Source: Flavivirga spongiicola (GTDB lineage Bacteria; Bacteroidota; Bacteroidia; Flavobacteriales; Flavobacteriaceae). Taken from it: a stretch of DNA of 64,000 bases. Numbering within the stretch: position 1 is the first letter of the stretch; the number at the start of each line of letters is the position of its first letter. Shown here piece by piece: positions 27,701 to 60,455 of the stretch. The DNA is taken from positions 4,415,001 to 4,479,000 of the forward strand of contig NZ_JAUOEO010000001.1 in NCBI RefSeq assembly GCF_030540825.1, given 5' to 3'. The notes under the pieces were generated by a model. That model was given only the letters and a program-made list of their open reading frames with translations, searched no databases and was not told the origin of the DNA. Both the position numbers and the translations under genes were made by a program.

Positions 27701-27798
27701 GGTAGCGCAAACGAAACAACTCCATCTTCTTTTTCTTGAGTATGGAATTGCTGTAAAAAACATAAAAATATAACGATATGTAATAAATATTTTTTCAC
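24703..27798 (-). CDS. sprD: Gliding motility protein SprD: PorP/SprF barrel, long Ala/Lys/Glu helix, SPOR-like end
   Basis: 1031 residues in four parts. Signal peptide (1-20, ...CFLQQFHTQ). A PorP/SprF-type outer-membrane barrel (~21-310; NRYIINPTFSFVREQN and AYNVVLDRDSNLTFGMNLGF). A charged helical region (~336-773) dominated by about 22 copies of the 16-mer RLKAAAEAKAKADEAA. A further predicted coiled region (~775-935), then a SPOR-like beta-alpha-beta fold (~950-1031, GYYLVIAVHNDVDKRDEF ... KYFIYYEKFNSVEQATRALK). SPOR domains bind denuded peptidoglycan, so the protein could tie an outer-membrane ring to the wall; this is inference. Its ATG begins 1 bp after the sprC stop, indicating translational coupling. 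Position and order match F. johnsoniae sprD, which is needed for colony spreading. The symbol rests on synteny more than on recalled sequence identity. Confidence 0.82.
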   Translation of the reverse strand: MKKYLLHIVIFLCFLQQFHTQEKEDGVVSFALPVRNSLKFNRYIINPTFSFVREQNKYISFNNKRQWVQFEDAPQTYLFGYSGRFREDIGVGVGLFQQSYGVLTTFGGVLNFAYNVVLDRDSNLTFGMNLGFYKSGLNDGKIVTNFPDDSLDNIPSNSLLTVNPGINYGTDFLDFGLSINNAVLYNLKTSKIVEDDPEQSIQAHVMYTGYTNSRGFFDESKFSGLIRSEFKKDKTVLSGIAMLTVPKGIWAQVGYNTLYGLSGGLGLNISTQISIEYNFEKAMGDLVDFGSSHDITLAYKFKNRYRYRYSGDDEENSIIIPTKRTRRPIARRKAPTKPKVSAKERAAAAAKAKADAAARVKAAEERAKERAEAAARAKEAAEAKAKADEEAARLKATAEAKAKADEAARLKAAAEAKAKADEAARLKAAAEAKAKADEAARLKAAAEAKAKADEAARLKAAAEAKAKADEAARLKAAAEAKAKADEAARLKAAAEAKAKADEAARLKAAAEAKAKADEAARLKAAAEAKAKADEAARLKAAAEAKAKADEAARLKAAAEAKAKADEAARLKAAAEAKAKADEEARLKAAAEAKAKADEEARLKAAAEAKAKADEAARLKAAAEAKAKADEAARLKATAEAKAKADEEARLKAAAEAKADEEARLKAAAEAKAKADEAARLKAAAEAKAKADEAARLKAAAEAKAKADEAARLKAAAEAKAKADEEARLKAAAEAKAKADEEARLKAAAEAAAKAKAEEEERAKSPVADITKSMNDLLTRLDETVAIRDQDLKDLKEENDLGEKGIFKAPRPFKSITAENAALESLKSELDGVINTRNEQIEKLEKSYKGSINPTELKMLERLKSEQIQALKSRENLMSALDKINVATEIERKRRIKRAAYDNADDRHSKDMATLNRIKQNTRVSTVPLKEEDFDFGEKQSENIQIVKDVKNTESGYYLVIAVHNDVDKRDEFVKKAVSAGQADINFFYDENTSKYFIYYEKFNSVEQATRALKTKGDKPYNGKMSMVKIEN
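25556..26640. repeat. 48-bp minisatellite encoding a 16-residue helix repeat in sprD
   Basis: About 22 tandem copies of a 48-bp unit encoding RLKAAAEAKAKADEAA or variants with EEA, ATA or T substitutions. One copy near 25820-25860 lacks 6 bp (two residues) and stays in frame. Synonymous differences (ggcttt/tgcttt, tctgct/tcggct) are scattered between copies. The array is therefore old enough to have diverged silently while the protein was held constant. Confidence 0.95.
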
Positions 27799-32171: not shown

Positions 32172-32894
32172 CTAATATGCCAAATCAGTCATTACTCTAT
32201 CAGCGTATATTTCTCCTATAGGTATGTGCATATCATCAATAACTACCTTTCGTTTTAAGACTTTGTTAATTAAACACGTGTTAATAATAAACGATTTATG
32301 TATTTGCCTAAAGTAATCGGGAAGGTTAACGAGAATTTTATCTAGTTCTAAAGTTGTAATTATTGGAGCACTATAATTATTTATAAAAATTTTAGTAACA
32401 CATTTCACCGTTTGTATGTATTTTATCTCGCTAATATCGAGTTTAATAGTTTCGTATTCTGTTTTAATTAAAAGACCTCCTCTATCCTTCTTTGTTTCTT
32501 TTGTTCCAGCAGAAACTATATTAACAGTACTCGAACTTAATTGTTTATCTCTATTCTTAACTTTAAATATTCCTTTTAATAAATCATTAAACACCATTGG
32601 TTTAATTAAGTAATCTGTTGCGTTTAATTTAAAAGCTTCTAACCTAAACTTGGCATCATCAGCAGTAAAAATAAACTGTGGTAAGTGTTCAATTTTTTTA
32701 GTGATTTCAATCCAATTAGAACAAAACAACTTCGCATCTAAAAAAGCCAAATCGATTTTATTCTTGTTTAAAAAAGTAACAGCATCTATGGGGTTAATAA
32801 ATGATGCTACTAATTTTACATGCTCTATTCTGTTTAGATAAGATTTTAAGGTATCAATGACTTTTGGACAGGTATCTACCACGACACATTTCAT
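32172..32894 (-). CDS. LytTR-family response regulator with atypical receiver
   Basis: 240 residues: receiver domain (~1-120) and LytTR DNA-binding domain (~145-240, YIQTVKCVTKIFINNYSAPI ... FRQIHKSFIINTCLINKVL). It aligns without gaps to the regulator at 37284-38009. Asp7, the phospho-acceptor Asp53 (AFLDAKLF) and Lys98 (YLIKP) are kept. The second acidic pocket residue is Thr8 instead of Asp, and the usual Met-Pro after Asp53 is replaced by Lys-Leu-Phe. Metal binding, and so phosphorylation, may be weakened. The ATG at 32894 starts the receiver (MKCVVVD); the frame is open 8 codons further but that start overlaps the previous gene. It is third in a kelch-DUF4907-LytTR operon, 10 bp after DUF4907, and no kinase gene adjoins it. 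Confidence 0.85.
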   Translation of the reverse strand: MKCVVVDTCPKVIDTLKSYLNRIEHVKLVASFINPIDAVTFLNKNKIDLAFLDAKLFCSNWIEITKKIEHLPQFIFTADDAKFRLEAFKLNATDYLIKPMVFNDLLKGIFKVKNRDKQLSSSTVNIVSAGTKETKKDRGGLLIKTEYETIKLDISEIKYIQTVKCVTKIFINNYSAPIITTLELDKILVNLPDYFRQIHKSFIINTCLINKVLKRKVVIDDMHIPIGEIYADRVMTDLAY

Positions 32895-32904
32895 TACTTT
32901 AAGA

Positions 32905-33228
32905 TTATTTGAACGCATTTAGTTGTATTTTTAATATTATTAGTTCTTTTAATGAAACAGTCGGAGAGTTCCTGGTCTTTAGTTTATTAATAACTAAACA
33001 TGCTACTTTATCGGCATCTTCTTCTGAAAAAAATGGTTTATTTTTTTGAATTGCAGGAATATAATTTTGTTTAATTAAAACCTTCTTATTACTAGTTATT
33101 TCATAACCAAAACCATTGTCAACTCTAAATGTTTTACTGTCTATAGCTTCCTTTTTATTTAATACTAATAAAGAGATTAATACTATTAAACCAGCTGCTA
33201 TAATAATAGGACTTACTATTTTCTTCAT
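32905..33228 (-). CDS. DUF4907 family membrane-anchored protein
   Basis: 107 residues. One N-terminal membrane segment or uncleaved signal (IVSPIIIAAGLIVLISLLVL) is followed by a ~75-residue domain with the DUF4907 pattern: GFGYEITSNKKVLIKQNYIP, then AIQKNKPFFSEEDADKVACL and VINKL. The family is found mainly in Bacteroidota, is uncharacterised, and probably faces the periplasm. It lies downstream of the kelch lipoprotein across a 116-bp gap that holds a 16-bp perfect inverted repeat, and 10 bp upstream of the LytTR start. A purine-rich AGGTGAAAG precedes the ATG. The family assignment is from recalled pattern, not a search. Confidence 0.75.
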   Translation of the reverse strand: MKKIVSPIIIAAGLIVLISLLVLNKKEAIDSKTFRVDNGFGYEITSNKKVLIKQNYIPAIQKNKPFFSEEDADKVACLVINKLKTRNSPTVSLKELIILKIQLNAFK

Positions 33229-33245
33229 CTTTCACCTTATATTTA

Positions 33246-33307
33246 ATATCCCCAAAACATTATCATCTAACACCAACGACTCTACCTATAGAATGTTTTG
33301 GGGATAT
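33246..33307. repeat. 16-bp perfect inverted repeat with 30-nt loop between kelch and DUF4907 genes
   Basis: ATATCCCCAAAACATT at 33246-33261 and its exact complement AATGTTTTGGGGATAT at 33292-33307. In the leftward transcript this makes a 16-bp stem with four consecutive G-C pairs. It lies between two genes of one presumed operon, 17 bp before the DUF4907 ATG. It may reduce read-through, protect the upstream message or act as an operator. Confidence 0.75.
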
Positions 33308-33344
33308 AATCAATAATCAAACTACTATAATTAATACTACTCAA

Positions 33345-34334
33345 TCAATCATCTTCATCATATTCCTCTAAAGGAAATATTTCGAAATTATCATCGAGAT
33401 ATAAATTACCTGTTCGTCCTAATAATACAAAGGCTCTGCTACCATTTGAAAAACTTACTGGATCTTGACGCACGGTAGCTTCTAATGCAGTAATTTCTTC
33501 CCAAATATCTGTTTCTGGTGTATACTCCCAAATGGTACCTACCGCACCTCCAGTATACCCTGCGGCAATATACCCTAATCCATTAACAGAAAAACTTACC
33601 GCATTAGATCGTGTTATTCTATAATCATCCTCTTCATCTAAATCCAGCTTTCTTGTCCATACTTCAGTTTTCGGATCGAACTCCCAAAAATCATCTACAT
33701 ATATACCATTACTTATACCTGTTCCTAAATACACTTTTTCATTTAAAACAAAAGTCGTTGCATCTCTACGTTTATTTCCTCCAAACCCAACAAGTTCGGA
33801 CCATTCATCAGCATTAGCGTCATATTTCCAAAAATCTTTTCTGTCATTATCACCATCATAACCCGTTCCAACATACCCAACGTTATTAATCCCAAAACTA
33901 ACGGCTCCTCTTCTAAGGCCTCCTCCAAAATCTGCTTTTTGAGTCCATGAGTTTGAACTTACATTATATTCCCAAAAATCTATCAACTCATTATCTCCAT
34001 CATAACCAATACCTAAATAACCTTTGTCATTCAGTGTGAAACTAGATGCCGAACTTCTTGGTGTCCCTGGAAAACTCGCTTTTTGAGACCAAAAATCCCC
34101 CTCTATATCATATTCCCAGAAATCGTTTAAGTAATCATCGCCATCATAACCCGTCCCCATAAAACCTTTATCACCTATGGTAAAACTAATAGCGCTACTT
34201 CTTGGTATACCATCAAAAACCGAGCGCTCTTTCCAATTTCCTCTTTCATAACCATCATCATCTGAGCATCCTGAGAAAGCTAGAGCAGAGCAAATAAGCC
34301 CTAACATAAATTTTCTATTGTTTGTCATTTTCAT
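33345..34334 (-). CDS. Kelch-repeat lipoprotein
   Basis: 329 residues. It has a lipoprotein signal peptide with lipobox AFSGC (Cys ~22) followed by acidic residues SDDDGYE, which in Bacteroidota can favour surface export. The body is six repeats of ~48 residues that form a kelch-type beta-propeller. Each has R/S-x-x-A-x-x-F, then GYxGTGYDGDxxxxDFWEYD and W-x-x-K (for example KGYLGIGYDGDNELIDFWEY). The repeated YDGDN/D acidic loops could bind divalent metal. It is the first gene of a leftward operon with DUF4907 and a LytTR regulator, and it is divergent from a DUF4270 lipoprotein and barrel pair. No catalytic residue is evident, and binding or scaffolding is the likeliest role. Confidence 0.85.
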   Translation of the reverse strand: MKMTNNRKFMLGLICSALAFSGCSDDDGYERGNWKERSVFDGIPRSSAISFTIGDKGFMGTGYDGDDYLNDFWEYDIEGDFWSQKASFPGTPRSSASSFTLNDKGYLGIGYDGDNELIDFWEYNVSSNSWTQKADFGGGLRRGAVSFGINNVGYVGTGYDGDNDRKDFWKYDANADEWSELVGFGGNKRRDATTFVLNEKVYLGTGISNGIYVDDFWEFDPKTEVWTRKLDLDEEDDYRITRSNAVSFSVNGLGYIAAGYTGGAVGTIWEYTPETDIWEEITALEATVRQDPVSFSNGSRAFVLLGRTGNLYLDDNFEIFPLEEYDEDD

Positions 34335-34737
34335 TCTTGTTTTTAAATTTATTTTTTAAATTAAATTTTACAGCCGCTGAAAAACAGAGACTATTCTCAA
34401 TATTAAAATCGTAAATAGCATTGTTGTTTTCATCCAGCAATTTATATGTATTATAAAAGGCATAACCTTCTTTAAAATCTGCTGTCCTTTAATATTATTA
34501 ACAGCTTTTTTGTTCATCTACAATATTTTTTAAGCAAACATATTATATGTTACTTCTGTCAAAAAACTAAATAGATATACTTGCTATTTCTCTATACAAA
34601 CTATAAACTTTCATAGACAAAATAGCTTTGTTGTGTTTATCGATAAATATTAAAGGTTAGACGCTTAAAAAGTAGCTTTTGTATACTTCTTTTTTTTGAA
34701 GCTGTGAACTCGTATAGATTCGCACAAAAAACCATAG
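34335..34737. other. Divergent promoter region, kelch operon and DUF4270 operon
   Basis: 403 bp separating two outward-facing transcription units. On the plus strand TAGCTTTG at 34623-34630 fits the -7 consensus ~108 bp before the DUF4270 ATG, but no good -33 TTG is seen at the right distance. No clear -7 element was found for the kelch side. This is the natural place to look for LytTR binding repeats serving both neighbouring LytTR proteins. Confidence 0.5.
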
Positions 34738-36027
34738 ATGAGATATATAGTTTTGCTTTTGATTATTGTCAGTTGTCTTTCTTGCAATAAAGAAGAAGAA
34801 GAGTTTACGTTACAAATAGGAGAAGACTTTGTTGAGAGTACAACTAAGGTATATTTTATAGATACCTTAACTGTTAAAGCCTCCACATTTCAGTTTGATT
34901 CTCTAATTGTATCCAGCCCTAACAGGCTTTTAATAGGTGCATATAACGACCCTGCTTTTGGAAAAACTTTGAGTAAAAGTTTTGTGCAATTAACAAATAC
35001 TATTTACAGCATAGATGATGATGCAGTTTACGACTCTATTGCATTAGTGCTTAATCCTGACAGATATTTTTACAATGATACCATACCTATTCAACAATTT
35101 AAAGTCTATGAAGTCTTAGATGATATAGAATCAGATGAAGGCTTCTATTACAATACAACAAACTTCAACTATAATACAATTCCTATTGCCGTTAAAGATT
35201 TTTTAGCAACACCAAATAAAAGTGATTCTTTAGATATTAAGGTGAATGATGTTTTTGGTTTGACTTTGTTTAACAAATTAAAAGAAAATGACATTAATAG
35301 TGGTTCAGAGTTTTTAGATGAATATAAAGGATTATTAATTGAAGCAAATAATAATGTTAATACTACTGTCTTAGGATTTTCAACCGATAGCTTTCTTCGA
35401 CTATATTATACGGTAGATGATAATGACAATGATCCAGAAGAAAAAACGATTGATTTTGCCATTAACCCATCAAATACTTTTAACCAAATAAGCAGTGAGA
35501 AATCTGGTACTTATTTTGAAAACATAGTAAACCAAGAAACATTAATTCCTAGTTCGGAAACCGATAATAGTTCTTTTATTCAAGCAGGAATTGGAATTGT
35601 TACCAGGTTAGATATCCCTTATTTAAAATCGTTAAATGATATTTCTTCTCAAGGTGTAGTTGTAGATGCCAAATTAAAATTCTCTTTAAAAGAGAACACC
35701 TATTCAGATAACTTGTATACCAAAGATTCTTTACAGGTTTACATCATTGACAATAAAGCTAACGTTTTAAGCAACTTAACTTTTGATGGTGAAACACCTA
35801 TTATGAGTACTATAGAAAATGACAATCCTGAATTTGATTCAGGTTTTTATACAATAAATATATTACCGTTTATCAGTTTAAAACAAAACGAAACTCATGA
35901 AGAATATTTTTTAGCTATTTACTCTCAAAACTTCAACAATTCAGTAGACAGATACATTTTTAATGGTAACCTCGCTCCAAATAACGTACGAATGAAATTG
36001 GAATTAACCTACGCTACCTATGACTAA
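34738..36027 (+). CDS. DUF4270 family lipoprotein
   Basis: 429 residues. The signal peptide ends at lipobox VSCLSC (Cys ~16) followed by NKEEEE. After it comes the DUF4270 pattern: STKVYFIDTLTVKASTFQFD, then LIGAYNDPAFGKTLSKSF, an internal region of beta strands, and a C-terminal NPEFDSGFYTINILPFISL. DUF4270 proteins are common in Bacteroidota, are outer-membrane or surface lipoproteins, and have no assigned function. The gene overlaps the downstream barrel gene by 8 bp, so the two are translationally coupled and probably form a complex. The ATG at 34738 is the first to give the lipoprotein signal. Confidence 0.85.
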   Translation: MRYIVLLLIIVSCLSCNKEEEEFTLQIGEDFVESTTKVYFIDTLTVKASTFQFDSLIVSSPNRLLIGAYNDPAFGKTLSKSFVQLTNTIYSIDDDAVYDSIALVLNPDRYFYNDTIPIQQFKVYEVLDDIESDEGFYYNTTNFNYNTIPIAVKDFLATPNKSDSLDIKVNDVFGLTLFNKLKENDINSGSEFLDEYKGLLIEANNNVNTTVLGFSTDSFLRLYYTVDDNDNDPEEKTIDFAINPSNTFNQISSEKSGTYFENIVNQETLIPSSETDNSSFIQAGIGIVTRLDIPYLKSLNDISSQGVVVDAKLKFSLKENTYSDNLYTKDSLQVYIIDNKANVLSNLTFDGETPIMSTIENDNPEFDSGFYTINILPFISLKQNETHEEYFLAIYSQNFNNSVDRYIFNGNLAPNNVRMKLELTYATYD

Positions 36028-37261
36028 CAAAACACACATTCTATTTTATATCATTTGCCAGTTCTGTATTGGTCAAATAGTACTTTCGCAAACAACAACA
36101 AATAGTTTATCATCATCACCTTATTCTCTTTACGGGTTAGGGATATCTAATGAGTTAAATACAGGAAAAACAAATGCCCTTGGTAACACTGGTTTTGCAA
36201 TGCCATCAACGTATTCGATAAATAACTTAAATCCAGCATCTTTTGGAGCTATTCCTGAAGGAAGTTTTTTATATGATATTGGCATTAAGGTACAGAAAGA
36301 AACACTTTATGAAGATGGTATCAAAGAATTTCGCTATAACGGAAACTTTTCAAATTTCAGCATAGCATTTCCATTATCAAAAAAATCGGGTTTAGGCATC
36401 ACCCTGATTCCGTTTACTAATGTAGGCTATATAGTATCTGGCTTGGAAAAATCAATTGATGGATCTACAGATACATTTTTAGCAAATATAACTGGCTCTG
36501 GAGGGCTAAATGACATCCAATTAAATTATGGGTATAAAGTAAATAATAAACTCAGACTCGGACTTAAAGGTTCCTACTTATTTGGAACCATAAAAGAGGA
36601 AGAAACCGATTTTATTGGTAACAATATTTTAAACATATCTGAAGAGAATTTTTATAATGGTTTTCGTTTAAGCACAGGAGTACAATATGATATAAATAAT
36701 AAAGTCTCTATTGGAGGTATTGTTAATTTCCCTACAACCCTAAATGGCAATCAAACAAGAACTGTTATTGGAGGTGTTGAGCCTGTTGAAGAAGAAAATA
36801 GTTTAGATGCTTTTAAATTACCTTTAGAAGTAGGCTTAGGGTTACACACAAAGTTAAATGATAAATTGTTCTTGAATCTTGATTATAAAAAGAGTTTTTG
36901 GGATAATACCGATCAGAGTGATTTAATAGGTGATTACGTAGATCAAGATTTTATTGGTTTTGGCTCAGAATTCACTCCCGAAAAAAGCAGTCTTAAATAT
37001 TGGAATCGAATAAATTATAGAGCAGGCTTTAGTATGGATAATGGAAATTTAGCAATTAAAAATAATAGAATTACTAATTACAGTATTAATTTAGGATTAG
37101 GACTCCCTACTGGTGGTCGAAGACACTCTATGATAAATTTAGGCTATTCGTATGGGCAAAAGGGGCAAGTCTCAAATGGTTTAATTAAAGAAAATTACCA
37201 TACACTAACTCTAAATTTTAGTCTAGAAGATTTATGGTTTCAGAAAAGAAAATATAATTAA
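36020..37261 (+). CDS. Outer-membrane beta-barrel protein, FadL/porin-like, function unknown
   Basis: 413 residues with a signal peptide ending ...QIVLSQ. The mature start SSSPYSLYGLGISNELNTG, followed by ALGNTGFAMPSTYSINNLNP, is typical of Bacteroidota proteins that resemble FadL-type barrels. In these an Asn-Pro-Ala hatch motif (NNLNPASFGAIPEGS) precedes alternating amphipathic strands such as GIGIT/LGLKGSYLFG and KLFLNLDYKKSFWDNT. It overlaps the DUF4270 gene by 8 bp, and the stop lies 22 bp from the convergent LytTR gene. No substrate can be named. The likely role is a transport or assembly partner of the DUF4270 lipoprotein. Confidence 0.8.
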   Translation: MTNKTHILFYIICQFCIGQIVLSQTTTNSLSSSPYSLYGLGISNELNTGKTNALGNTGFAMPSTYSINNLNPASFGAIPEGSFLYDIGIKVQKETLYEDGIKEFRYNGNFSNFSIAFPLSKKSGLGITLIPFTNVGYIVSGLEKSIDGSTDTFLANITGSGGLNDIQLNYGYKVNNKLRLGLKGSYLFGTIKEEETDFIGNNILNISEENFYNGFRLSTGVQYDINNKVSIGGIVNFPTTLNGNQTRTVIGGVEPVEEENSLDAFKLPLEVGLGLHTKLNDKLFLNLDYKKSFWDNTDQSDLIGDYVDQDFIGFGSEFTPEKSSLKYWNRINYRAGFSMDNGNLAIKNNRITNYSINLGLGLPTGGRRHSMINLGYSYGQKGQVSNGLIKENYHTLTLNFSLEDLWFQKRKYN

Positions 37262-37283
37262 GTTTTTCGACGCCGTATAAAAG

Positions 37284-38009
37284 CTAAACTTTAAGCCGTA
37301 TTACAACTTCTTCTTTATATGTTTCTCCAATAGGTATGCGTTTGTCTCCTACAACAACCTTAGTTTTTTGTAAAGCTCTAATCGCATTTATATTTATAAT
37401 ATATGAGCGATGTACACGCATAAAATTTTCAGGAAGTTTGTCTAAAATACTTTTGAAACTTGATAGGGTCAATAAAGCCTTAGAATTATCCTTTTGGTAA
37501 ATTTTAATATAGTCTTTTAAACCTTCAATATACTGTATATCTTGTACATCTACTTTAATATTTTCGTATTCGGATTTTACAAAAATAAAATCATTCTGAG
37601 GAATGACTTCTTGTTGACTCAAAGTAGAAGATATTCTACCAGAAATGGTATTCTCTAATGCATTCTTTTCTTTAGCCCTTGAAACAGCTTTTAGAAATCG
37701 ATGAAACGGAATAGGTTTTACTAAATAATCGGTTGCGTTTAAGTTAAACCCTTCTAAAGCATGTTGTGGACTGGCTGTAGTAAAAATGAATTGCGGCATG
37801 TTTTCTATGGTTTTAACCAAATCTAACCCGGTTAAATTAGGCATTTCTATGTCTAAAAACACTAAATCTACTTGGTGCTTGTTAAGGATGGTAATGGCTT
37901 CTAATGGATTGTTACATTTAGCAACAATCTCTAAACTACAAATTTGGTTAACATAGGATTCTATAACGTCTACTGCTAACGGTTCATCATCTATTATTAC
38001 GCACTTCAT
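37284..38009 (-). CDS. LytTR-family response regulator
   Basis: 241 residues: receiver (~1-120) with a complete phosphorylation pocket (Asp7, Asp8, Asp53 in VFLDIEMP, Lys98 in YLVKP), and a LytTR DNA-binding domain (~140-241, YIEGLKDYIKIYQKDNSKAL ... FMRVHRSYIININAIRALQ). It is 12 bp downstream of a LytS-type kinase gene and is its cognate partner. It is a close paralogue of the regulator at 32172-32894, colinear over the whole length. Both probably derive from one duplication and may share DNA targets. Convergent with the outer-membrane barrel gene. Confidence 0.95.
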   Translation of the reverse strand: MKCVIIDDEPLAVDVIESYVNQICSLEIVAKCNNPLEAITILNKHQVDLVFLDIEMPNLTGLDLVKTIENMPQFIFTTASPQHALEGFNLNATDYLVKPIPFHRFLKAVSRAKEKNALENTISGRISSTLSQQEVIPQNDFIFVKSEYENIKVDVQDIQYIEGLKDYIKIYQKDNSKALLTLSSFKSILDKLPENFMRVHRSYIININAIRALQKTKVVVGDKRIPIGETYKEEVVIRLKV

Positions 38010-38021
38010 CTTATATAAGTT

Positions 38022-39014
38022 TTAATTCAATTTTAATTTTAAATCAACAATAAATTTATCATCGTTTTCTCCTGTAGTTAGCCAATACTTTTCAGGATAT
38101 AACAACTGCAAACGATCTTTAGTATTTTGCATTCCAATTCCAGAGTTTTCACTGTTTTTAGTTCTATTTCCTATTAAATTTAAACATTTAAACTGCAGTT
38201 CATTATCCTTAACACTAATATCAATTTTCACTTCGGTATTACCATTAAAGTCGGTTCCATATTTAAAAGCGTTTTCTATATAAGATATAAATAATAGGGG
38301 CCTAATCTTTTGAGTTGAAACCGTTCCATGAATATTGGTTTTCACATTTTCGTTTTTGGCGATTCGTAAACGCTGTAGTTTTATATAATTTTCTATATAG
38401 GTTAATTCTTCTTTTAACAACACGAAATCATCATTTGACGTATATAGCATATAGCGCATAAGTTCCGATAACATAATAACTGCTTCCGGTGCATCATTCG
38501 AGTTTTTTACTGTAAGTGAATAAATACTATTTAACGAATTAAACAAAAAATGAGGGTTTATCTGGTTTTTAAGTGCTTCTAATTCCGAAACATTTTTTTG
38601 AGCTTCGATATCCTTTTTGACAGTGTCGTTTCTTATCCATTCTTCATATATTTTAATGGCTGTTCCTAGTACTAAGAACATTAAAGAATATACAACAGGT
38701 AAAGATTTTCTGCCTTTAAAACTAGACATTTCTTCAGGAAAAGGCAGCAGTTTAATAAAAAGCAAGTAAGAAGCAATTAGTATGATAAAAATCGAACCAA
38801 AATATGCGATTTTTCTCTTTTTTAATAATAAGAATGGAACGAGTATGATATAATTGACATAGAAAAAGAACAGGTTAGCGCTCATTCTGTAAAAAAACAT
38901 TTTCGAAATTTTATTTTCTTCTGTATACAGTTGAATTGAAATAACAAAAATTAATACGGTCCATATTAATACATGGATTAAGAATTGGTTTTTATTTTTT
39001 TTGGTTTCTGTCAA
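38022..39014 (-). CDS. LytS-like sensor histidine kinase (His_kinase family)
   Basis: 330 residues. Three or four membrane helices occupy residues ~12-120 with almost no extracytoplasmic domain. A short linker helix leads to the His_kinase domain of PF06580 type. The phospho-accepting His155 is in NQINPHFLFNSLNSIYSL, the N box is FISYIENAFKYGTD, and the glycine box is NSGIGMQNTKDRLQLLYP. Kinases of this form sense at or within the membrane and usually partner LytTR regulators, as here (12-bp gap). It may also serve the orphan LytTR protein 5 kb away, which has no kinase of its own. Confidence 0.94.
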   Translation of the reverse strand: MTETKKNKNQFLIHVLIWTVLIFVISIQLYTEENKISKMFFYRMSANLFFFYVNYIILVPFLLLKKRKIAYFGSIFIILIASYLLFIKLLPFPEEMSSFKGRKSLPVVYSLMFLVLGTAIKIYEEWIRNDTVKKDIEAQKNVSELEALKNQINPHFLFNSLNSIYSLTVKNSNDAPEAVIMLSELMRYMLYTSNDDFVLLKEELTYIENYIKLQRLRIAKNENVKTNIHGTVSTQKIRPLLFISYIENAFKYGTDFNGNTEVKIDISVKDNELQFKCLNLIGNRTKNSENSGIGMQNTKDRLQLLYPEKYWLTTGENDDKFIVDLKLKLN

Positions 39015-39761
39015 ACTTAATCTTTATAATTAATTTATCGGATATATTGTATTTGCGAAATTTCAATTCTAAAAATTCCTTTAGGAAGTTATCCGCCAAA
39101 AATCTTAATAAAAAACATATTACCTTTATGAATTAACACTTTGTTCACTATCTTTTTTAAAAAAATTAAGAGTTTATGGGGTTTTGAAGGTGTCATTTTA
39201 AGATTCAATTAGTATTTATATACCAATAAAGTTTATTATCCATAACGATGCTATGCAGCTCAAAAAAAACTTCTTATAAGAATACCTGCCAGCAGGCAGA
39301 AAACGACTATTTTTCGCTTCAATCAAAAAAACACATGTTTAGCTTGACTGGAGCGTCTAAACCACTTCAATATAGAGAGAGATTTAATTTTCTAAAAGAA
39401 AGATAGATGAATCGGGAAAATGATTCTATGAATATTGGTTTTATATCGACTAAATATGTTTCATTTAGCGATTATAGTACTCTAAATACAAGCTAAAGAG
39501 CCTTGAAATGAGTTTTTTCTTAAGACTTATTCCTATAATCTATTGTAATTATCAACTATGCACAGTACTTTGGAGGTTGTACAGTGTCAATATGTTGTAA
39601 TATGTAATTATGGCTAAATCAATATAAAATAACATGAATCTTCAGAGTAAAAAACCGAATTTCTTCGTTAAAAATACTCGCCGTAACTAGGCTATGCCTA
39701 CGTTTTTTGCCTTGAACTTCAATTTTTTATTTTTAAATATTCTATGCCATTTTATATCGAC
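39015..39761. other. Intergenic region holding short inverted-repeat elements
   Basis: 747 bp without a recognisable gene. It holds the 5' region of the kinase gene, a small hairpin CTGCC-AGCA-GGCAG at 39286-39299 resembling short GC-rich repeats scattered in flavobacterial genomes (recollection, not searched), and a ~164-bp imperfect palindrome at 39608-39771. Confidence 0.6.
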
Positions 39762-39771
39762 TTAGCTATAA
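39608..39771. mobile_element. MITE-like ~164-bp imperfect palindrome
   Basis: The outer arms pair over ~30 bp: TTATGGCTAAATCAATATAA at 39608 against the complement of the end at 39771, with a few mismatches. Inner segments continue to pair (TAAAAAA-GAA-TTC spacing on both sides) down to a terminal hairpin TAGGC-TAT-GCCTA at 39688-39700. There is no coding capacity. The right arm enters the lactonase gene and supplies its last residues (Tyr-Ser-stop). It resembles dispersed intergenic palindromes of Flavobacteriaceae. Copies elsewhere in the genome cannot be seen here. Confidence 0.5.
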
Positions 39772-40754
39772 GGTTTCAACTTAACCCGCATTAATTTTGG
39801 ACCACAAGTAATATACAAGGTTTCTTCTTTATCATCTAAAACACAATTGGTATTAAATTCATTATTTAAAATAGTACCTAAGTGTTTACCTTCTGGATTT
39901 AAAATATAAACGCCTCCTGGACCAGTGGCAAATATAATTCCATGTTTATTAACCTTTAATCCATCTGGATGTCCCTTTTCTTTTGGGGCATTCCCAGTAG
40001 CATCAAAAAAAAGTCTTCCGTTTGAGATATGACCATTTTCATCCACATCGGCAGCTATCCAAATTGCATGTTTCCAATCTGCGTTTGCTATATATACTGT
40101 CTTTTCATCAGGAGAAAAGGCAATTCCATTGGGACTAGAAAGTGTATCTGTTACAACTTGTACGTTCCCTTTAGGAGTAATGTGATAAACGGCTGCTTTT
40201 AAACCACCTTCCTTAACCGGAGGTGGATCAGACATAATCATATTTCCATTCGAATGAAAAGCGGCATCATTGGTGTTATTAAATCGAACTCCGTTATAAT
40301 TATCAACAAAAATGCTAAAATCATTTGTAGGTCTATCCAATGAACTATTCATTTTTACAGCTTGTCCATGACCATATTGTAAGATAACCAATTTATCATT
40401 ATTATCGACCAAAAGTGCACTTGGCCCCGGTCTATCTGGATTGGCATCCTTCATATCAAGGTATAAGGTAACACTATCCTTTTCAGTCCACTGGTATATT
40501 TTTTGATGGCCAACATCTGTATAGATCAATTTTTGCTCATCTTTAAGCCATATAGGCCCTTCTGACCACTTGTGTCCTGTTGAAAGAATTTCAATAACTG
40601 CATTAAGTGAAATAACGTCGTCTAATTGTTTATCAAGTCTTTCAATTTTACCAACCGTTTGAAACGTTTTTGTTTTTGCCTTTTCTTGCTTAGCACAAGA
40701 AAACATAAGTATCGATATTAGAAATAGTCTTAAAGTTTTACTTAATGTATACAT
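39762..40754 (-). CDS. SMP-30/gluconolactonase-family lipoprotein
   Basis: 330 residues with a lipoprotein-like signal (FLISILMFSCAK, Cys ~20), so probably periplasmic and membrane-anchored. The body is a six-bladed SMP-30/gluconolactonase propeller. It shows the opening E-G-P-x-W motif (KWSEGPIWLKDEQKLIYTDV), Asn in FNNTNDAAFHSNGN, SSPNGIAFSPDEKTVYIAN with the metal-site Asn, and GHPDGLKVNKHGIIFATGPG with the catalytic-type Asp. These metal-ligand positions (Glu, Asn, Asp) fit hydrolysis of a sugar lactone. It is the last gene of a six-gene operon, 3 bp after an inositol-dehydrogenase-like gene. That enzyme could make the lactone this one opens. A palindromic element forms its 3' end. Confidence 0.9.
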   Translation of the reverse strand: MYTLSKTLRLFLISILMFSCAKQEKAKTKTFQTVGKIERLDKQLDDVISLNAVIEILSTGHKWSEGPIWLKDEQKLIYTDVGHQKIYQWTEKDSVTLYLDMKDANPDRPGPSALLVDNNDKLVILQYGHGQAVKMNSSLDRPTNDFSIFVDNYNGVRFNNTNDAAFHSNGNMIMSDPPPVKEGGLKAAVYHITPKGNVQVVTDTLSSPNGIAFSPDEKTVYIANADWKHAIWIAADVDENGHISNGRLFFDATGNAPKEKGHPDGLKVNKHGIIFATGPGGVYILNPEGKHLGTILNNEFNTNCVLDDKEETLYITCGPKLMRVKLKPYS

Positions 40755-40757
40755 TTG

Positions 40758-41768
40758 CTATTTAATTTTTATACTATTAACTTTTATTGATCGATTTTCT
40801 ATTAGAGATCTATTTGCCGCTTCTGCTATTATCATAGCTTTAAGTCCATCTTCTCCAGAAACTGGCATTGATTTATTATTCTTTAGGGTGTCAACAAAAC
40901 ATTTCATTTCTTCAAGATACGAAGCTTCATATCTATCCATGAAAAAATCCAAATGACGATCAGATTTTGTTCCGGATTCTGTTAATATGTTTAAATCACT
41001 TTTCAAAGGATTCTCAACCTTTATAACACCTTTAGAGCCAAATACTTCCAAACGTTGATCATAGCCATATTTTGCTTCACGACTATTCTCTATGGTAGCC
41101 ATAGCACCATTTTCAAATTTTAATAAAACGGTAGCACTATCAATGTCTCCTGCATCACCAATAGCAGAATTAACCAAACAATCACCATAGGCAAAAACTT
41201 CAACAACTTCACATCCCATTATAAATCGGGCCATATCAAAATCATGGATGGTCATATCTTTAAACAAGCCTCCTGAATTTTTAATGTAAGATATAGGAGG
41301 TGGCTGAGGGTCTCTACTAATTATATGAAGATTGCGTAAGCATCCTATTGTATCCTTAGATATTTCATCTTTTACCTTCGAAAAATTCTTATCAAATCTT
41401 TGATTAAACCCAATCATTATTGGAACGTTCAATTCTGAAATTACAGATATTGTTTCACTTGCTTTTTCGAGAGACATATCAATTGGCTTCTCGCAAAATA
41501 TTGCTTTTCCAGCTTTAGCAGATTTTATTGCATATTCAGAATGCGTGCTGCTAGGAGAGCTTATAACTACAGCATCTATTTCTGGATTCTCAATAATAGC
41601 ATTTATATTATTAGAAACATTTTTAATATCATTATTTAAGGCAAATTTCTGCCCCTCATCTCCAGGATTCACTACCGAAAGTACTTCAACACCTTTAATT
41701 TTCCTAGAAAGATTCTCTAGGTGAATCTTTCCCATTCTTCCTATTCCAATAATTCCAATTTTAATCAT
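40758..41768 (-). CDS. Gfo/Idh/MocA-family oxidoreductase, inositol 2-dehydrogenase-like
   Basis: 336 residues and cytoplasmic, with no signal peptide. The Rossmann motif GIIGIGRMGKIH is at residues 5-16. The EKP motif (residues 93-95, FCEKPIDMSL) carries the catalytic lysine Lys94. FKDMTIHDFDMARF gives Asp171 and His175, the same triad as Lys97/Asp172/His176 of Bacillus inositol dehydrogenase. Residues ~125-330 are the mixed beta-sheet substrate domain. It oxidises a cyclic polyol or sugar with NAD(P)+, and the exact substrate is uncertain. The neighbours are otherwise exported, so this would act on a substrate already taken up, or the lactonase acts in a separate step. Gap to the upstream gene is 27 bp and to the downstream gene 3 bp. 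Confidence 0.9.
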   Translation of the reverse strand: MIKIGIIGIGRMGKIHLENLSRKIKGVEVLSVVNPGDEGQKFALNNDIKNVSNNINAIIENPEIDAVVISSPSSTHSEYAIKSAKAGKAIFCEKPIDMSLEKASETISVISELNVPIMIGFNQRFDKNFSKVKDEISKDTIGCLRNLHIISRDPQPPPISYIKNSGGLFKDMTIHDFDMARFIMGCEVVEVFAYGDCLVNSAIGDAGDIDSATVLLKFENGAMATIENSREAKYGYDQRLEVFGSKGVIKVENPLKSDLNILTESGTKSDRHLDFFMDRYEASYLEEMKCFVDTLKNNKSMPVSGEDGLKAMIIAEAANRSLIENRSIKVNSIKIK

Positions 41769-41795
41769 CTGTTTTTTTATTATTGCGGCTTATAA

Positions 41796-43193
41796 TTAAT
41801 CAAAACTAATTTTTAATTTTTCACTTCCCTTTTGTAGTTCGGACACTATTTCATTGGTTGCATTCGATTCGGAAAGATACAGTGTTCTTAAATGAGTAAG
41901 CTTTGGAATTACAGCTAAAAGTCCAATAGAAACTTCTGTATTAAATAGGTTTAGAGATTCTAAATTTTTTAATTTTTCCAGATGTACTAAACCGTTGTCA
42001 GAAATTTTATTTCCACTAAGGTTTAGTTTAATCAAGTTTTCCAGTCGTCCTATTTTTTCAAGATTACCATCGGTTACATTCGAATTGCTCATATTCAACC
42101 AAATCAATTGATCTTTTATTTGTAAGAGTGATTCTACACTATGCATTGTGAGTTTCTTTTCGCTCAAACTAAAATTTGCTTCCAAAAAATAATTATCCTT
42201 CATAAGTAGATTCAAAATAAAACCTTGATTGCTTAATGAATCTATAATTTCTTTTTTTGGGGATTGAACCATTTCTCTTAAGAAATTATTTTTGTCAAGA
42301 CCTAATTGTCTGCTAACATTATCTATCATTTCTTTATCAGGTTTTAATGCTGTAAAATAACCCCTTGACGGTGCATTGTTATTTATCCACCAACCAATAA
42401 AAGCAACTTCATCATCTGTTAATGGCCTTTTACCTTCTGTTGGCATAAAGTCGTCGTGAGTAGTAGGAAGTGTAATGCGTCTAAAAAGGTCACTTGAATT
42501 AGGGTCTCCAGGAATTATAGCTTCACCATTTTCTCCACCTTTCATTAAATATGAAAAACTTGTTAAATTAAGATCTCCTTTCTTTTTATCTTCATTATGG
42601 CAGCTTACACAACGATTATTCATTATAGGAGAAACCAAGTCCAGATAAACATCGGCAGAATCCAGAACGGTTACTTTTTTACGAGGAATAGCCTTTTTTG
42701 ATAAACCTGCTAATTGACGAACTGGATTAGGCGCATATTCTAATAAATAAGTAGATCCGTGTGTTAGGTTACCTCCCAAATGTCCTGTGTAAAAAATGGC
42801 AACAACGACTATAGTTACAAGTATTGATTTTCCATAAAACGGGATTTTTATTTGTTTTTTGGATATATAATAACAGGCTAATGAAAACAAAAGTACAGCA
42901 ACTCCGCTCCATTTATGCCAAAAAATAGTGTCTTCATTATAATCTCCAGATAACGAAAGAAAATAACCAAATAATACTGCGAAAAATGCTCCAATAACAC
43001 CAAGCCCCCATATATACTGGACAAAAGCCTTTATAGGTTCAAACTTTGTCCATTTTGTAGAAATTTCTGCAAGTCCTGCCAATAACAAAAAGCCTATAGG
43101 AAGATGAACAACCAAAGGGTGAATCCTTCCTAAAAACAAAATGATATCAGAAGGCGTGTCAGAATCAATATTGAGTAAAATATTTAGAACCAT
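41796..43193 (-). CDS. DUF2231 membrane protein with cytochrome c site and leucine-rich repeats
   Basis: 465 residues. The N-terminal four-helix DUF2231 domain (~15-150) has RIHPLVVHLPIGFLLLAGL and a His in FWHKWSG, possible haem-b ligands. A planctomycete-type cytochrome c motif follows (Cys195-Val-Ser-Cys198-His199, then KKGDLNLTSFSYLMKGGENG and HDDFMPTEGKRPLTDDEV). A C-terminal LRR segment runs over ~355-460 (LIWLNMSNSNVTDGNLEKIG, NLIKLNLSGNKISDNGLVHL). It is probably an inner-membrane electron-transfer subunit with a periplasmic cytochrome. Its cytochrome pattern is the same as in the PSD1 protein two genes upstream, suggesting shared redox work. It overlaps nothing, with 5 bp to the upstream gene. 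Confidence 0.88.
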   Translation of the reverse strand: MVLNILLNIDSDTPSDIILFLGRIHPLVVHLPIGFLLLAGLAEISTKWTKFEPIKAFVQYIWGLGVIGAFFAVLFGYFLSLSGDYNEDTIFWHKWSGVAVLLFSLACYYISKKQIKIPFYGKSILVTIVVVAIFYTGHLGGNLTHGSTYLLEYAPNPVRQLAGLSKKAIPRKKVTVLDSADVYLDLVSPIMNNRCVSCHNEDKKKGDLNLTSFSYLMKGGENGEAIIPGDPNSSDLFRRITLPTTHDDFMPTEGKRPLTDDEVAFIGWWINNNAPSRGYFTALKPDKEMIDNVSRQLGLDKNNFLREMVQSPKKEIIDSLSNQGFILNLLMKDNYFLEANFSLSEKKLTMHSVESLLQIKDQLIWLNMSNSNVTDGNLEKIGRLENLIKLNLSGNKISDNGLVHLEKLKNLESLNLFNTEVSIGLLAVIPKLTHLRTLYLSESNATNEIVSELQKGSEKLKISFD

Positions 43194-43198
43194 TTACT

Positions 43199-44122
43199 TT
43201 ATTTGAGCGGTGTTCCTTTAATTGGTTTACCATTCGTTGTTAATATTTGAAAATGATGTGCGCGATAATTATCATAAGTCCAAACCATATTTTTATCTGA
43301 GTCTAATTCAAATATCTTAATACCCTTTTGTGCACCATAACTCGCTATTACGGTATTCCCATTAGGCAATCTTTGTGCCCCACATGGATCTACTAAGGGG
43401 TTTTCTTCAAATAACGAATTATTAATTTCCCAAATTATTTTTCCATCAGAATCCAATTCAACTACTCTGTTTCCATGGGTTAACGTCACTAAGGTATTTC
43501 CATTTTTAGATCGAATAGCTGTAAATGGCCATGTCTGAGCTTCACGTCCTCCAAATGATTTATAATCAGTACTAAAAGTATTTACTATGGTCCCATCTGG
43601 TTTATATTCTTTAACTGCAAAGGCTAATAAATGAGGGACAAGATAATTACCATTCTTCAGTTTTCTTGCCATTCTAGTTTGCATATGAATATTGTCGGTT
43701 TCTGGTTGAAGTGGTATGCTTTTAACAACTTTTCCTTTTTTATTGATCTCAACAATTTTGGGTGCTGTTCCAGATTCAGTAATCATCGTGTTGCCATTAG
43801 AAAGTCGAACAGCAGTTCCTAATTCCATAGACGCTTCAGATTTTTTATAAGTAAGGATAACTTCTTTTTTCTTGTTGTATTCTCTAACTTCATCTCCCCA
43901 ACAAATTAGAATATTTCCATTTTTAAGTACATATCCATCTCTTGCTCCTACTTTTTTAGAATCCCAAACGACTTCTCCAGCCTCTCCTATAATACCCGTA
44001 AATTGCGGGCCAGCAATAAAGAAAGAATGACTAATACCCGATGCTGATTTCTGTGCCGATAAAAGTAATGGAGTGATTAAAAAAAGGTAAAGACTTAATT
44101 TTAAAATTGAATTTATTTTCAT
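43199..44122 (-). CDS. Exported PQQ-like beta-propeller protein
   Basis: 307 residues. Signal peptide (1-23, LSLYLFLITPLLLSAQ) and then repeated ~40-residue blades: GEVVWDSKKVGARDGYVLKN, LKNGNTMI/LSNGNTMITES, LKNGNYLVPHLLAF, SKNGNTLVTLTHGNRVVELD and LPNGNTVIASYGAQKGIKIF. The recurring L-x-N-G-N-T/I motif is shared by PQQ-like and arylsulfotransferase-like propellers. No haem or PQQ ligand is certain. It lies between the DUF1501 and DUF2231 genes in the operon (20 and 5 bp gaps), so it probably acts in the periplasm with the PSD1/DUF1501 pair, perhaps as a substrate-binding or enzyme module. The function is not established. Confidence 0.8.
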   Translation of the reverse strand: MKINSILKLSLYLFLITPLLLSAQKSASGISHSFFIAGPQFTGIIGEAGEVVWDSKKVGARDGYVLKNGNILICWGDEVREYNKKKEVILTYKKSEASMELGTAVRLSNGNTMITESGTAPKIVEINKKGKVVKSIPLQPETDNIHMQTRMARKLKNGNYLVPHLLAFAVKEYKPDGTIVNTFSTDYKSFGGREAQTWPFTAIRSKNGNTLVTLTHGNRVVELDSDGKIIWEINNSLFEENPLVDPCGAQRLPNGNTVIASYGAQKGIKIFELDSDKNMVWTYDNYRAHHFQILTTNGKPIKGTPLK

Positions 44123-44142
44123 TAGGTAAGTGTTTATTATTT

Positions 44143-48533: not shown

Positions 48534-48653
48534 GAATTTAACATCAAAAGTTATAATTAAATATAGTACCATTTATTGTTTTAATGAAAAGGAAACATTC
48601 TACTAAAATAGAAACAACGAAACTGAAATTAATTGATAATATGCTGTAATTTA

Positions 48654-57742: not shown

Positions 57743-57748
57743 GATTGT

Positions 57749-57940
57749 TCATTTTATTAAAAACATAGTATTTATATCTACATCATTAGGAATGTCCTTA
57801 AGTTTTGAAGCAACATATTTAGCCTTCATAATGTTAAATTTCTTATGGTTTTCTTTATTTGAGTTTATCCATTCTATCATTTTCATTTTTTCGGAATCAT
57901 CCATCTTTCCTTCTATATACTTTAAAATTTTTGCTTCCAT
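57749..57940 (-). CDS. Small protein resembling the FecR anti-sigma N-terminal domain
   Basis: 63 residues, all helical and charged: MEAKILKYIEGKMDDSEKMK then MIEWINSNKENHKKFNIMKA. The layout of a short helix, a Gly-x-(L/M)-(S/D)-x-x-E turn, and a helix with W-I-x-x-(N/S)-x-x-N-x-x-x-(F) is that of the cytoplasmic N-terminus of FecR-type anti-sigma regulators. There the domain binds an ECF sigma factor. Here there is no membrane helix and no FecR periplasmic domain, and the protein simply ends ...DVDINTMFLIK. It sits tightly between two permease genes (25 bp before, 6 bp after), so it is translated with them. A longer reading frame on the other strand (57741-57980) has no such features. It may be a free regulator or the remnant of a truncated fecR. 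Confidence 0.65.
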   Translation of the reverse strand: MEAKILKYIEGKMDDSEKMKMIEWINSNKENHKKFNIMKAKYVASKLKDIPNDVDINTMFLIK

Positions 57941-57965
57941 ATTTAATTATTTATGTAAAGCTCAA

Positions 57966-60443: not shown

Positions 60444-60455
60444 AATTGTTCAACT

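What the first reader, a model, noticed from the sequence alone, without database searches (positions are those of the whole stretch)
32172..39014. Kelch-DUF4907-LytTR / DUF4270-barrel / LytS-LytTR cluster as an undescribed envelope system
Seven adjacent genes combine uncharacterised families: a kelch lipoprotein with acidic YDGDN loops, DUF4907, a DUF4270 lipoprotein overlapping a FadL-like barrel, and two colinear LytTR paralogues with one kinase between flanking units. The two divergent operons share one 403-bp control region, and both ends are closed by a LytTR regulator. This is the architecture of a self-regulated outer-membrane assembly or uptake machine. The joint function is inference; I recall similar groupings in other Bacteroidota but no described role.
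Basis: partly seen in the sequence, partly recalled or inferred. Interest (0 to 1): 0.7.

Follow-up and report, generated by a model that had tools for sequence, protein, structure and literature searches.

The report
Regulated spare outer-membrane protein-assembly module
These genes look like a switchable second set of parts for the machine that builds the bacterial outer membrane, kept next to its own sensor-regulator pair; it matters because such parts were known only as silent spare copies without a context.

Summary
The gene cluster is real and its co-occurrence far beyond chance. The 'FadL-like barrel' is BamG (383 bits, cut-off 250) and the 'DUF4270 lipoprotein' is BamH, canopy subunits of the Bacteroidota BAM complex described in 2025. 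They are a second set; canonical copies lie elsewhere in this genome. Of 199 family genomes 30 carry this BamH2; all 29 outside loci have a kelch lipoprotein divergent from BamH2-BamG2, and 28 add a kinase and LytTR regulator. All 26 DUF4907 genes in those genomes lie here. In 79 of 80 named loci, nearly all Flavobacterium, the module lies near skp-skp-bamA. In six genomes only the module's pair was found; in two of them the canonical bamH site is syntenic but empty. The shared control region carries LytTR-type repeats with a 21-bp period, phased to a promoter of the kelch operon. Best reading: an inducible alternative BAM canopy. BamA binding, the roles of kelch and DUF4907, and the signal are inferred; published BamG2/BamH2 were silent or undetected and dispensable. 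I found no description of the module. The window's relocated kinase and second LytTR are local peculiarities.

The parts
32172..32918 (-). LytTR_B: receiver + LytTR paralogue with an altered receiver (IIDDEP of the orthologues reads VVDTCP; D in FLD and K in KP kept)
   Evidence: 38% identical to LytTR_A, 35-42% to the other best matches; occupies the place of kinase-LytTR in relatives
32905..33228 (-). DUF4907 protein: N-terminal hydrophobic anchor then a small, probably exported domain (lipoprotein-like Cys in the Flavobacterium rows)
   Evidence: PF16250 E=1.6e-24; hydrophobic stretch 4-22; alignment
33345..34334 (-). kelch propeller (six repeats read by eye), lipoprotein with acidic tail CSDDDGY, probably surface-exposed
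   Evidence: kelch families; lipobox-like Cys in 49 of 50 homologues, >=2 acidic residues after it in 39
34335..34737 (.). 403-bp divergent control region
34535..34542 (-). TATGTTTG, -7-like element (TAnnTTTG, consensus recalled) of a promoter for the kelch operon, with a TTG 17 bp before it
34589..34601 (-). LytTR-type repeat, promoter-proximal copy (GTTTGTATAGAGA)
34610..34622 (-). LytTR-type repeat, distal copy (TTTTGTCTATGAA), 21 bp from the first; the best-scoring of six such pairs in the 64-kb window
34635..34668 (+). weaker 21-bp repeat pair facing BamH2 (second copy very weak)
   Evidence: scores 13.5 and 3.6
34738..36027 (+). BamH2: DUF4270-family lipoprotein (CNKEEEE), paralogue of BamH
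36020..37261 (+). BamG2: FadL-type barrel, paralogue of BamG
   Evidence: NF053685 383 bits, cut-off 250; PDB 9hjm_F, 9hiv_F, 9n2d_B
37284..38009 (-). LytTR_A response regulator, orthologue of the module's regulator, relocated
   Evidence: 59-67% identical to the seven best outside matches, all regulators of this module
38022..39014 (-). LytS-like histidine kinase, about four hydrophobic helices and no large exported sensor domain, relocated with LytTR_A
   Evidence: PF06580 E=4.4e-26; 46-53% identical to the seven best orthologues, helices by hydropathy
39421..39454 (-). weak 21-bp repeat pair upstream of the kinase gene (possible autoregulation)
   Evidence: scores 3.7 and 9.8

Best explanation
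An inducible, alternative BAM canopy module. BamG2 (barrel) and BamH2 (surface lipoprotein) are made on demand and take the place of BamG1/BamH1 on the BamA-BamD core, giving a BAM complex with a different extracellular canopy. The kelch lipoprotein, encoded divergently from BamH2-BamG2 in every family locus seen, is most likely a third surface subunit or the client of that canopy (the B. thetaiotaomicron canopy also contains a six-bladed propeller lipoprotein, BamI). DUF4907 is a probably exported partner of kelch. The kinase and LytTR regulator sense an envelope or OM-assembly signal and activate the kelch operon, probably BamH2-BamG2 too, through LytTR-type repeats in the shared region. Shown: family membership, second-copy status, gene-order conservation, genomes in which no other pair was found, repeat architecture and its phasing to a promoter-like element of the kelch operon. 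Inferred: binding to BamA, the place of kelch, the signal, binding of the regulator, control of the BamH2 promoter.
For: BamG2 passes the curated BamG cut-off and matches the three solved BamG chains; BamH2 profile against canonical BamH profile E=1.6e-38 over 421 columns, and the canonical profile finds 9n2d_C 'Bam H'. The own genome holds canonical BamG and BamH elsewhere. Order: 29 of 29 outside family loci have kelch-BamH2-BamG2, 28 of 29 the kinase-LytTR on the kelch side; 79 of 80 named loci have the six-gene core, the 80th is cut by its contig. DUF4907 in 26 of 199 family genomes, all at this locus. In 79 of those 80 named loci the order continues BamG2-murI-skp-skp-bamA, bamA 2.5-5.4 kb beyond BamG2; the 80th ends too early. 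G014, G016, G205, G426, G441 and G576 show only the module's BamG and no canonical BamH, by two searches each; in G014 and G016 the canonical bamH site is syntenic but lacks bamH. BamG N-terminal motif in 36 of 41 BamG2 rows, WF in the C-tail in 38 of 41. Same-strand 21-bp repeat pairs in 24 of 40 intergenic regions, 0.15 expected, phased to TAnnTTTG in 12 of the 14 regions that have both on the kelch side.
Against: In B. thetaiotaomicron BamG2/BamH2 were not detected by proteomics, and a bamH bamH2 double deletion was no worse than bamH alone, which its authors take as arguing against an alternative complex that rescues (PMC12578637). In F. johnsoniae they are not appreciably expressed on rich medium, are deletable, and are not among the five proteins that co-purified with BamA (PMC12611786). 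BamH is not essential in B. thetaiotaomicron, and a BamA substitution makes it dispensable in F. johnsoniae, so a genome without canonical bamH need not depend on BamH2; the argument from BamG is stronger. Kelch-DUF4907 occurs without BamH2/BamG2 in 3 of 20 phylum loci and without adjacent BamG2 in 2 more. Only 3 of 7 testable regions show phased repeats on the BamH2 side. The four accepted distances were chosen, and the motif was trained on the same regions. The second-best repeat pair of the 64-kb window lies elsewhere, at 56611 (20.9 against 22.7). L085, from the genus of several of the bamA-linked loci (g127), has no bamA in its stretch. The tree leaves one or two origins of BamG2 open. 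No structure could be predicted.
Confidence: 0.6

Rival explanations
1. Dedicated cargo machine: BamG2-BamH2 do not swap into general BAM but escort one client, the kelch lipoprotein and, in some genomes, the DUF6268 barrel encoded beside it, to the surface.
For: Kelch is present in all 29 outside family loci; a DUF6268-type barrel (PF19783 in the two members scanned) is encoded between kelch and BamH2 in 17 of 49 loci and 76 of 80 named loci. A dedicated escort would be dispensable and silent on rich medium, as published.
Against: In six genomes no other BamG/BamH was found, while BamG/BamH are reported as universally conserved and BamG as essential (PMC12611786, PMC12578637); a pure escort could not stand in for that. 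The window and 19 of 29 family loci lack the DUF6268 gene.
Confidence: 0.22
2. Envelope-stress circuit: the kelch lipoprotein and DUF4907 are the sensor of failed OM assembly that drives the kinase, and BamG2-BamH2 are one of several outputs.
For: The kinase has no large exported sensor domain and DUF4907 is a small, probably exported protein encoded next to it in relatives; phased repeats stand mainly before the kelch operon, which in relatives is followed by the kinase and regulator genes on the same strand, so the circuit may be autoregulatory.
Against: DUF4907-kelch occurs without a nearby kinase-LytTR pair in 8 of 20 phylum loci, and kinase-LytTR occurs without DUF4907 in 3 family loci. 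The strict repeat pattern has two matches in the own genome, one of them here and one beside a gene that is not an obvious target; the reversed control also gives two, so no wider regulon was found.
Confidence: 0.13
3. FadL-type uptake system for a hydrophobic substrate (one of the first reader's options).
For: BamG belongs to the FadL family; weak matches to CymD/TodX in the PDB.
Against: BamG-type N-terminal motif kept; far better match to BamG than to transporters (E 4e-36 against 4e-4); the partner gene is a BamH.
Confidence: 0.03

Closest known systems
BAM complex of Flavobacterium johnsoniae / Bacteroides thetaiotaomicron / Porphyromonas gingivalis (BamA-D-G-H core; PMC12611786, PMC12578637)
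   Same: BamG- and BamH-family subunits, predicted surface lipoproteins, BamG N-terminal motif and WF in the C-tail; one version also has a six-bladed propeller lipoprotein (BamI)
   Different: Second-copy genes, BamH 429 aa in the window against 550 for the canonical one of the same genome, own two-component system, kelch, DUF4907, divergent operons with LytTR-type repeats; complex formation not shown
BamG2/BamH2 of F. johnsoniae and BT1785/BT1786 of B. thetaiotaomicron
   Same: BamG/BamH paralogues encoded together; F. johnsoniae CI04 has its BamH2-BamG2 in exactly this module, three genes from bamA
   Different: Published as unexpressed or undetected, dispensable paralogues; the words 'kelch' and 'two-component' are absent from both main texts. 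The UW101 and B. thetaiotaomicron loci were not seen here, so their identity with this module is inference
LytS/LytTR-type two-component systems and LytTR direct repeats (PMC6193735)
   Same: His_kinase PF06580 with receiver-LytTR; repeats with a 21-bp period (9 bp + 12 bp in that paper) upstream of a promoter
   Different: Located before BAM-type operons; different repeat sequence

Membership tests
BamG family | curated BamG model over its cut-off | tested here: met
   383.3 bits, cut-off 250
BamG family | N-terminal SPYSxYGxG-like motif and WF in the C-tail | tested here: met
   window has SPYSLYGLG and WFQKRKYN; 36 of 41 and 38 of 41 BamG2 rows, against 20 of 24 and 23 of 24 canonical rows
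BamG family | physical contact with BamA | not testable with these tools
BamH / DUF4270 family | matches PF14092 | tested here: inconclusive
   window protein below threshold; 22 of 25 rows of its family match, and PF14092 finds the locus in most of the 30 genomes
BamH / DUF4270 family | full-length profile similarity to canonical BamH | tested here: met
   hhalign E=1.6e-38, 421 columns; canonical profile matches PDB 9n2d_C 'Bam H'
BamH / DUF4270 family | surface-lipoprotein signal (>=2 acidic residues in the six after Cys) | tested here: met
   CNKEEEE in the window; 30 of 47 homologues
Functional BAM canopy | can serve as the cell's only BamG-BamH pair | tested here: inconclusive
   only pair found in six genomes, canonical bamH site empty in two; expression and function there unknown
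BamI (propeller of the B. thetaiotaomicron canopy) | sequence relationship of kelch to BamI | tested here: inconclusive
   no BAM chain among the 60 of 80 PDB matches shown; the other 20 were not seen
LytTR two-component system | PF06580 kinase, receiver and LytTR domains over cut-off | tested here: met
LytTR two-component system | 21-bp direct repeats upstream of the target promoter | tested here: met
   binding not shown
FadL-type transporter | no BamG-type N-terminal extension through the lateral opening | tested here: not met
   BamG-type N-terminal motif present; its path through the barrel was not modelled

The most novel reading that the evidence does not exclude
Bacteroidota carry a switchable second BAM machine: a two-component system exchanges the extracellular canopy (BamG1-BamH1 for BamG2-BamH2-kelch), changing which outer-membrane and surface proteins are built; in some lineages the switchable version has displaced the canonical one for good.
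Probability: 0.42. Interest if true: 0.87.

Novelty: new variant of a known kind. Interest (0 to 1): 0.7.

Why it matters
The two 2025 BAM papers left BamG2/BamH2 as paralogues without expression or phenotype. This locus supplies a context: a regulator to switch on, a constant kelch partner, a defined promoter region and species in which no other pair was found. That makes the question 'is there an alternative BAM complex?' directly testable, and it offers a candidate OM-assembly control circuit in a phylum that includes gut commensals, pathogens and environmental polymer degraders.

Tried and rejected
FadL uptake system: rejected on motif and score. Link to the LytTR/kinase pair FJOH_RS09515/09520 of F. 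johnsoniae UW101, mutated in a coevolution experiment (PMC10197871): not supported; the published mutated bases C44 and G46 of that LytTR gene do not fit this module's LytTR gene in strain CI04 from either in-frame start (a different strain). Wider regulon in the own genome: two matches of the strict pattern, two of the reversed control; the match outside the module lies beside a gene that is not an obvious target. Iron response of BT1785-86: listed with 0.437 beside it in a table of PMC10434189, not used. Recurrent neighbours beyond the module: no cluster in more than 8 of 49 loci; those in 7-8 are mostly one shared gene order that includes bamA. PDB searches with the DUF4907 and BamH2 profiles: nothing significant; with the window BamH2 alone: nothing. 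Second BamG copies as such: many family genomes without BamH2 also show two BamG matches; the match list was cut, so their strength was not seen and the BamG count alone was not used as evidence.
Full report
What is there. The seven ORFs are confirmed at the stated coordinates. Left, minus strand: kelch lipoprotein 33345-34334, DUF4907 32905-33228, LytTR_B 32172-32918. Right, plus strand: lipoprotein 34738-36027 and barrel 36020-37261, overlapping by 8 bp. Then, minus strand, kinase 38022-39014 and LytTR_A 37284-38009. The divergent gap is 403 bp.

The two right-hand genes are BamH2 and BamG2. The barrel scores 383 bits to NCBI's BamG model, cut-off 250, and matches the solved BamG chains 9hjm_F, 9hiv_F and 9n2d_B at E 4e-36 to 2e-27. 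The lipoprotein itself has no DUF4270 match and none in the PDB, but 22 of 25 rows of its family alignment match DUF4270; the family profile aligns with canonical BamH over 421 columns, E=1.6e-38, and the canonical profile finds PDB 9n2d_C, named Bam H, at 8e-144. The own genome holds a canonical BamG at C1:3209435 (464 bits) and a canonical BamH at C1:1763265 (205 bits). The window pair is therefore a second set.

Conservation. Searching 199 genomes of the same family with the window BamH2 gave 48 with a match at E<=0.001: 30 full-length orthologues (E<=1.3e-48, window included) and 18 genomes with only weak N-terminal matches in longer frames (515-591 aa). I fetched all 29 outside loci. Kelch, BamH2 and BamG2 are present in 29 of 29; kinase and LytTR on the kelch side in 28 of 29; DUF4907 in 25 of 29. 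DUF4907 (PF16250) occurs in 26 of 199 genomes, all 26 at this locus (coordinates agree); hypergeometric P about 1e-28, not corrected for relatedness. Across the phylum 29 of 395 genomes have DUF4907; 25 were new, I fetched 20. Of these 20, kelch is adjacent in 20, BamH2 near in 17, BamG2 in 15, a kinase plus LytTR match near the cluster in 12, one of these weak (L072); L066 has a LytTR alone, L070 and L075 only distant matches. In named genomes a BamH2 scan found 312 relatives; the best 80 were kept, nearly all titled Flavobacterium, including F. johnsoniae CI04: 79 of 80 have LytTR-kinase-DUF4907-kelch / BamH2-BamG2, 76 with a DUF6268-type barrel between kelch and BamH2 (PF19783 in the two members scanned); the 80th (L131) is cut by its contig. 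In 79 of the 80 the order continues BamG2-murI-skp-skp-bamA (POTRA and Omp85 domains), bamA lying 2.5-5.4 kb beyond BamG2; the 80th (L165) ends before it. The 80 are close relatives, so this is one arrangement, not 79 independent ones. Of the 49 other loci 7 have bamA there; L085, from the same genus as most of those 7, does not. The own family is most likely Flavobacteriaceae (inference from the nearest named relatives).

Local rearrangement. In the window the kinase and LytTR_A lie downstream of BamG2 instead of behind DUF4907. They still match the module's proteins best (kinase 46-53%, LytTR_A 59-67% identical to the seven best; only module loci were compared). LytTR_B sits where kinase-LytTR would be, is 38% identical to LytTR_A and 35-42% to the other best matches, and has an altered receiver (IIDDEP reads VVDTCP); a duplicated, decaying or repurposed regulator is an inference.

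Can BamG2-BamH2 do BAM work? I searched 30 genomes chosen for having the locus with the BamG model and with DUF4270; most have both sets. Six (G014, G016, G205, G426, G441, G576) show only the module's BamG, with the family model and with a profile of canonical BamG, and no canonical BamH with PF14092 or a profile of canonical BamH. G437 and G470 have a BamG elsewhere and only the module's BamH. G014 is one contig, 100% complete; G016 is 91% complete in about 220 contigs and weaker evidence. In the window genome and in G110 canonical bamH lies between a glgA-like gene and glmS, with panC and panD on the other side (gene names recalled from sequence). In G014 and G016 these genes are in order but bamH is missing, with 425 and 52 bp between the neighbours. 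In G014 two further genes that follow glmS in the window genome are missing too, so bamH is not the only gene lost there; in G426 and G205 the synteny is not kept and says nothing. PMC12611786 reports BamA, D, G and H as conserved across the phylum and G and H as essential; PMC12578637 could not delete bamG but could delete bamH. These genomes thus look like natural replacements, with the argument stronger for BamG. Limits: the profiles are weighted to one family, the canonical bamG site was not inspected in these genomes, and function there is unknown.

Regulation. In 43 divergent intergenic regions k-mers of the type TTTGTCTA and TTGGTAGA are enriched. A motif trained on these regions, without spacing information, gives, in 40 regions after dropping three near-duplicates, 44 same-strand pairs exactly 21 bp apart in 24 regions; first-order Markov shuffles give a mean of 0.15 regions, maximum 2 in 200 runs. 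LytTR repeats in PMC6193735 are mostly 9 bp separated by 12 bp, the same 21-bp period. In the kelch direction 14 of 40 regions have both a pair and a TAnnTTTG element (Bacteroidota -7 consensus, recalled); in 12 of 14 the element lies 28-29 or 49-50 bp beyond the pair, null mean 0.08, maximum 2. These distances were picked after seeing their distribution, so the null flatters them, though the clustering at two distances 21 bp apart is plain. The window is one of the 12: repeats at 34610-34622 and 34589-34601, TATGTTTG at 34535-34542, a TTG 17 bp before it. Its pair scores best of six in 64 kb (22.7); the next, at 56611, lies elsewhere (20.9). It is one of two exact pattern matches in the genome, with two for the reversed control. 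On the BamH2 side only 3 of 7 testable regions are phased, so control of BamH2-BamG2 is likely but less well supported.

Mechanism. Kelch in the window has six repeats (read from the sequence), a lipobox and an acidic tail; 49 of 50 homologues have a lipobox-like Cys and 39 the acidic tail; for BamH2 47 of 47 and 30. In the window both meet the surface-lipoprotein criterion used in PMC12578637. That paper describes BamI as a six-bladed propeller in the BAM dome, so kelch as third canopy subunit is reasonable by analogy, but no sequence link to BamI was shown (one search listed 60 of 80 matches, none a BAM chain). The kinase has about four hydrophobic helices and no sizeable exported domain, so its signal may arrive in the membrane or through DUF4907. 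DUF4907 goes with kelch more strictly (20 of 20) than with the kinase-LytTR pair (12 of 20).

Against. B. thetaiotaomicron BamG2/BamH2 were undetected and the double deletion added nothing; F. johnsoniae BamG2/BamH2 were silent on rich medium and deletable. Both facts fit a switched-off module, but they are also what a non-functional or cargo-specific pair would give. BamG trees leave one or two origins of BamG2 open (one origin in 50% of bootstrap trees).

Literature seen. PMC12611786: outline with abstract, section 5 part 1 of 2, section 10, passages. PMC12578637: outline with abstract, section 7, passages. PMC10434189, PMC10197871, PMC6193735, PMC13067283: passages only (85; 87; 101). Not in print as far as searched: DUF4907 gives 0 papers, DUF4270 one, a table row, 'kelch' with 'Flavobacterium johnsoniae' none, BamG2/BamH2 as words 12 papers of which 10 were listed, only the two BAM papers relevant, BT1785/BT1786 two papers; a 2026 BAM review has neither BamG nor kelch in its main text. 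Listings were otherwise not followed. Most subscription journals and bioRxiv are not held, and figures such as the gene-order figure in PMC12611786 could not be seen, so the authors may have drawn part of the locus.

Noticed in passing
window 24703-27798 (-): PorP/SprF-type protein (PF11751 E=1.9e-47) whose gene carries about 25 copies of a 48-bp repeat at 25550-26764. It lies directly upstream, on the same strand, of a 5578-aa ORF (7878-24614), which may be its giant surface partner; no family search was run on the giant ORF.
   Followed up: partly
window 39762-48572 (-): Genes with planctomycete-type cytochrome domains (45594-48572: PSCyt1, PSCyt2, PSD1; 41796-43193: DUF2231-PSCyt1-LRR) and an SMP-30 gene (39762-40754): looks like a sugar-degradation cluster (inference).
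   Followed up: no
window 55352-62873 (-): Two MacB/FtsX-type permeases (55352-57742, 60456-62873) with a third ORF of similar size between them that was not scanned.
   Followed up: no
Kelch-DUF4907 may be a unit of its own.
   Followed up: partly
L067, L077 (genomes G470, G437): BamH2 with kelch and DUF4907 but without adjacent BamG2; the only BamG found in these genomes lies elsewhere, as if BamH2 used the canonical BamG.
   Followed up: partly
L062 (genome G016): Two kelch genes, no DUF4907 and no well-matching kinase-LytTR pair beside BamH2-BamG2, in a genome where no canonical BamG/BamH was found: the switch may be lost where the pair is the only one.
   Followed up: no
L065 8551-12553 (own genome): Canonical BamG follows a coaX-like gene and is followed by a TPR-like protein and a lipoprotein that looks like LptC (names recalled): BAM and LPS export may be co-expressed.
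   Followed up: no
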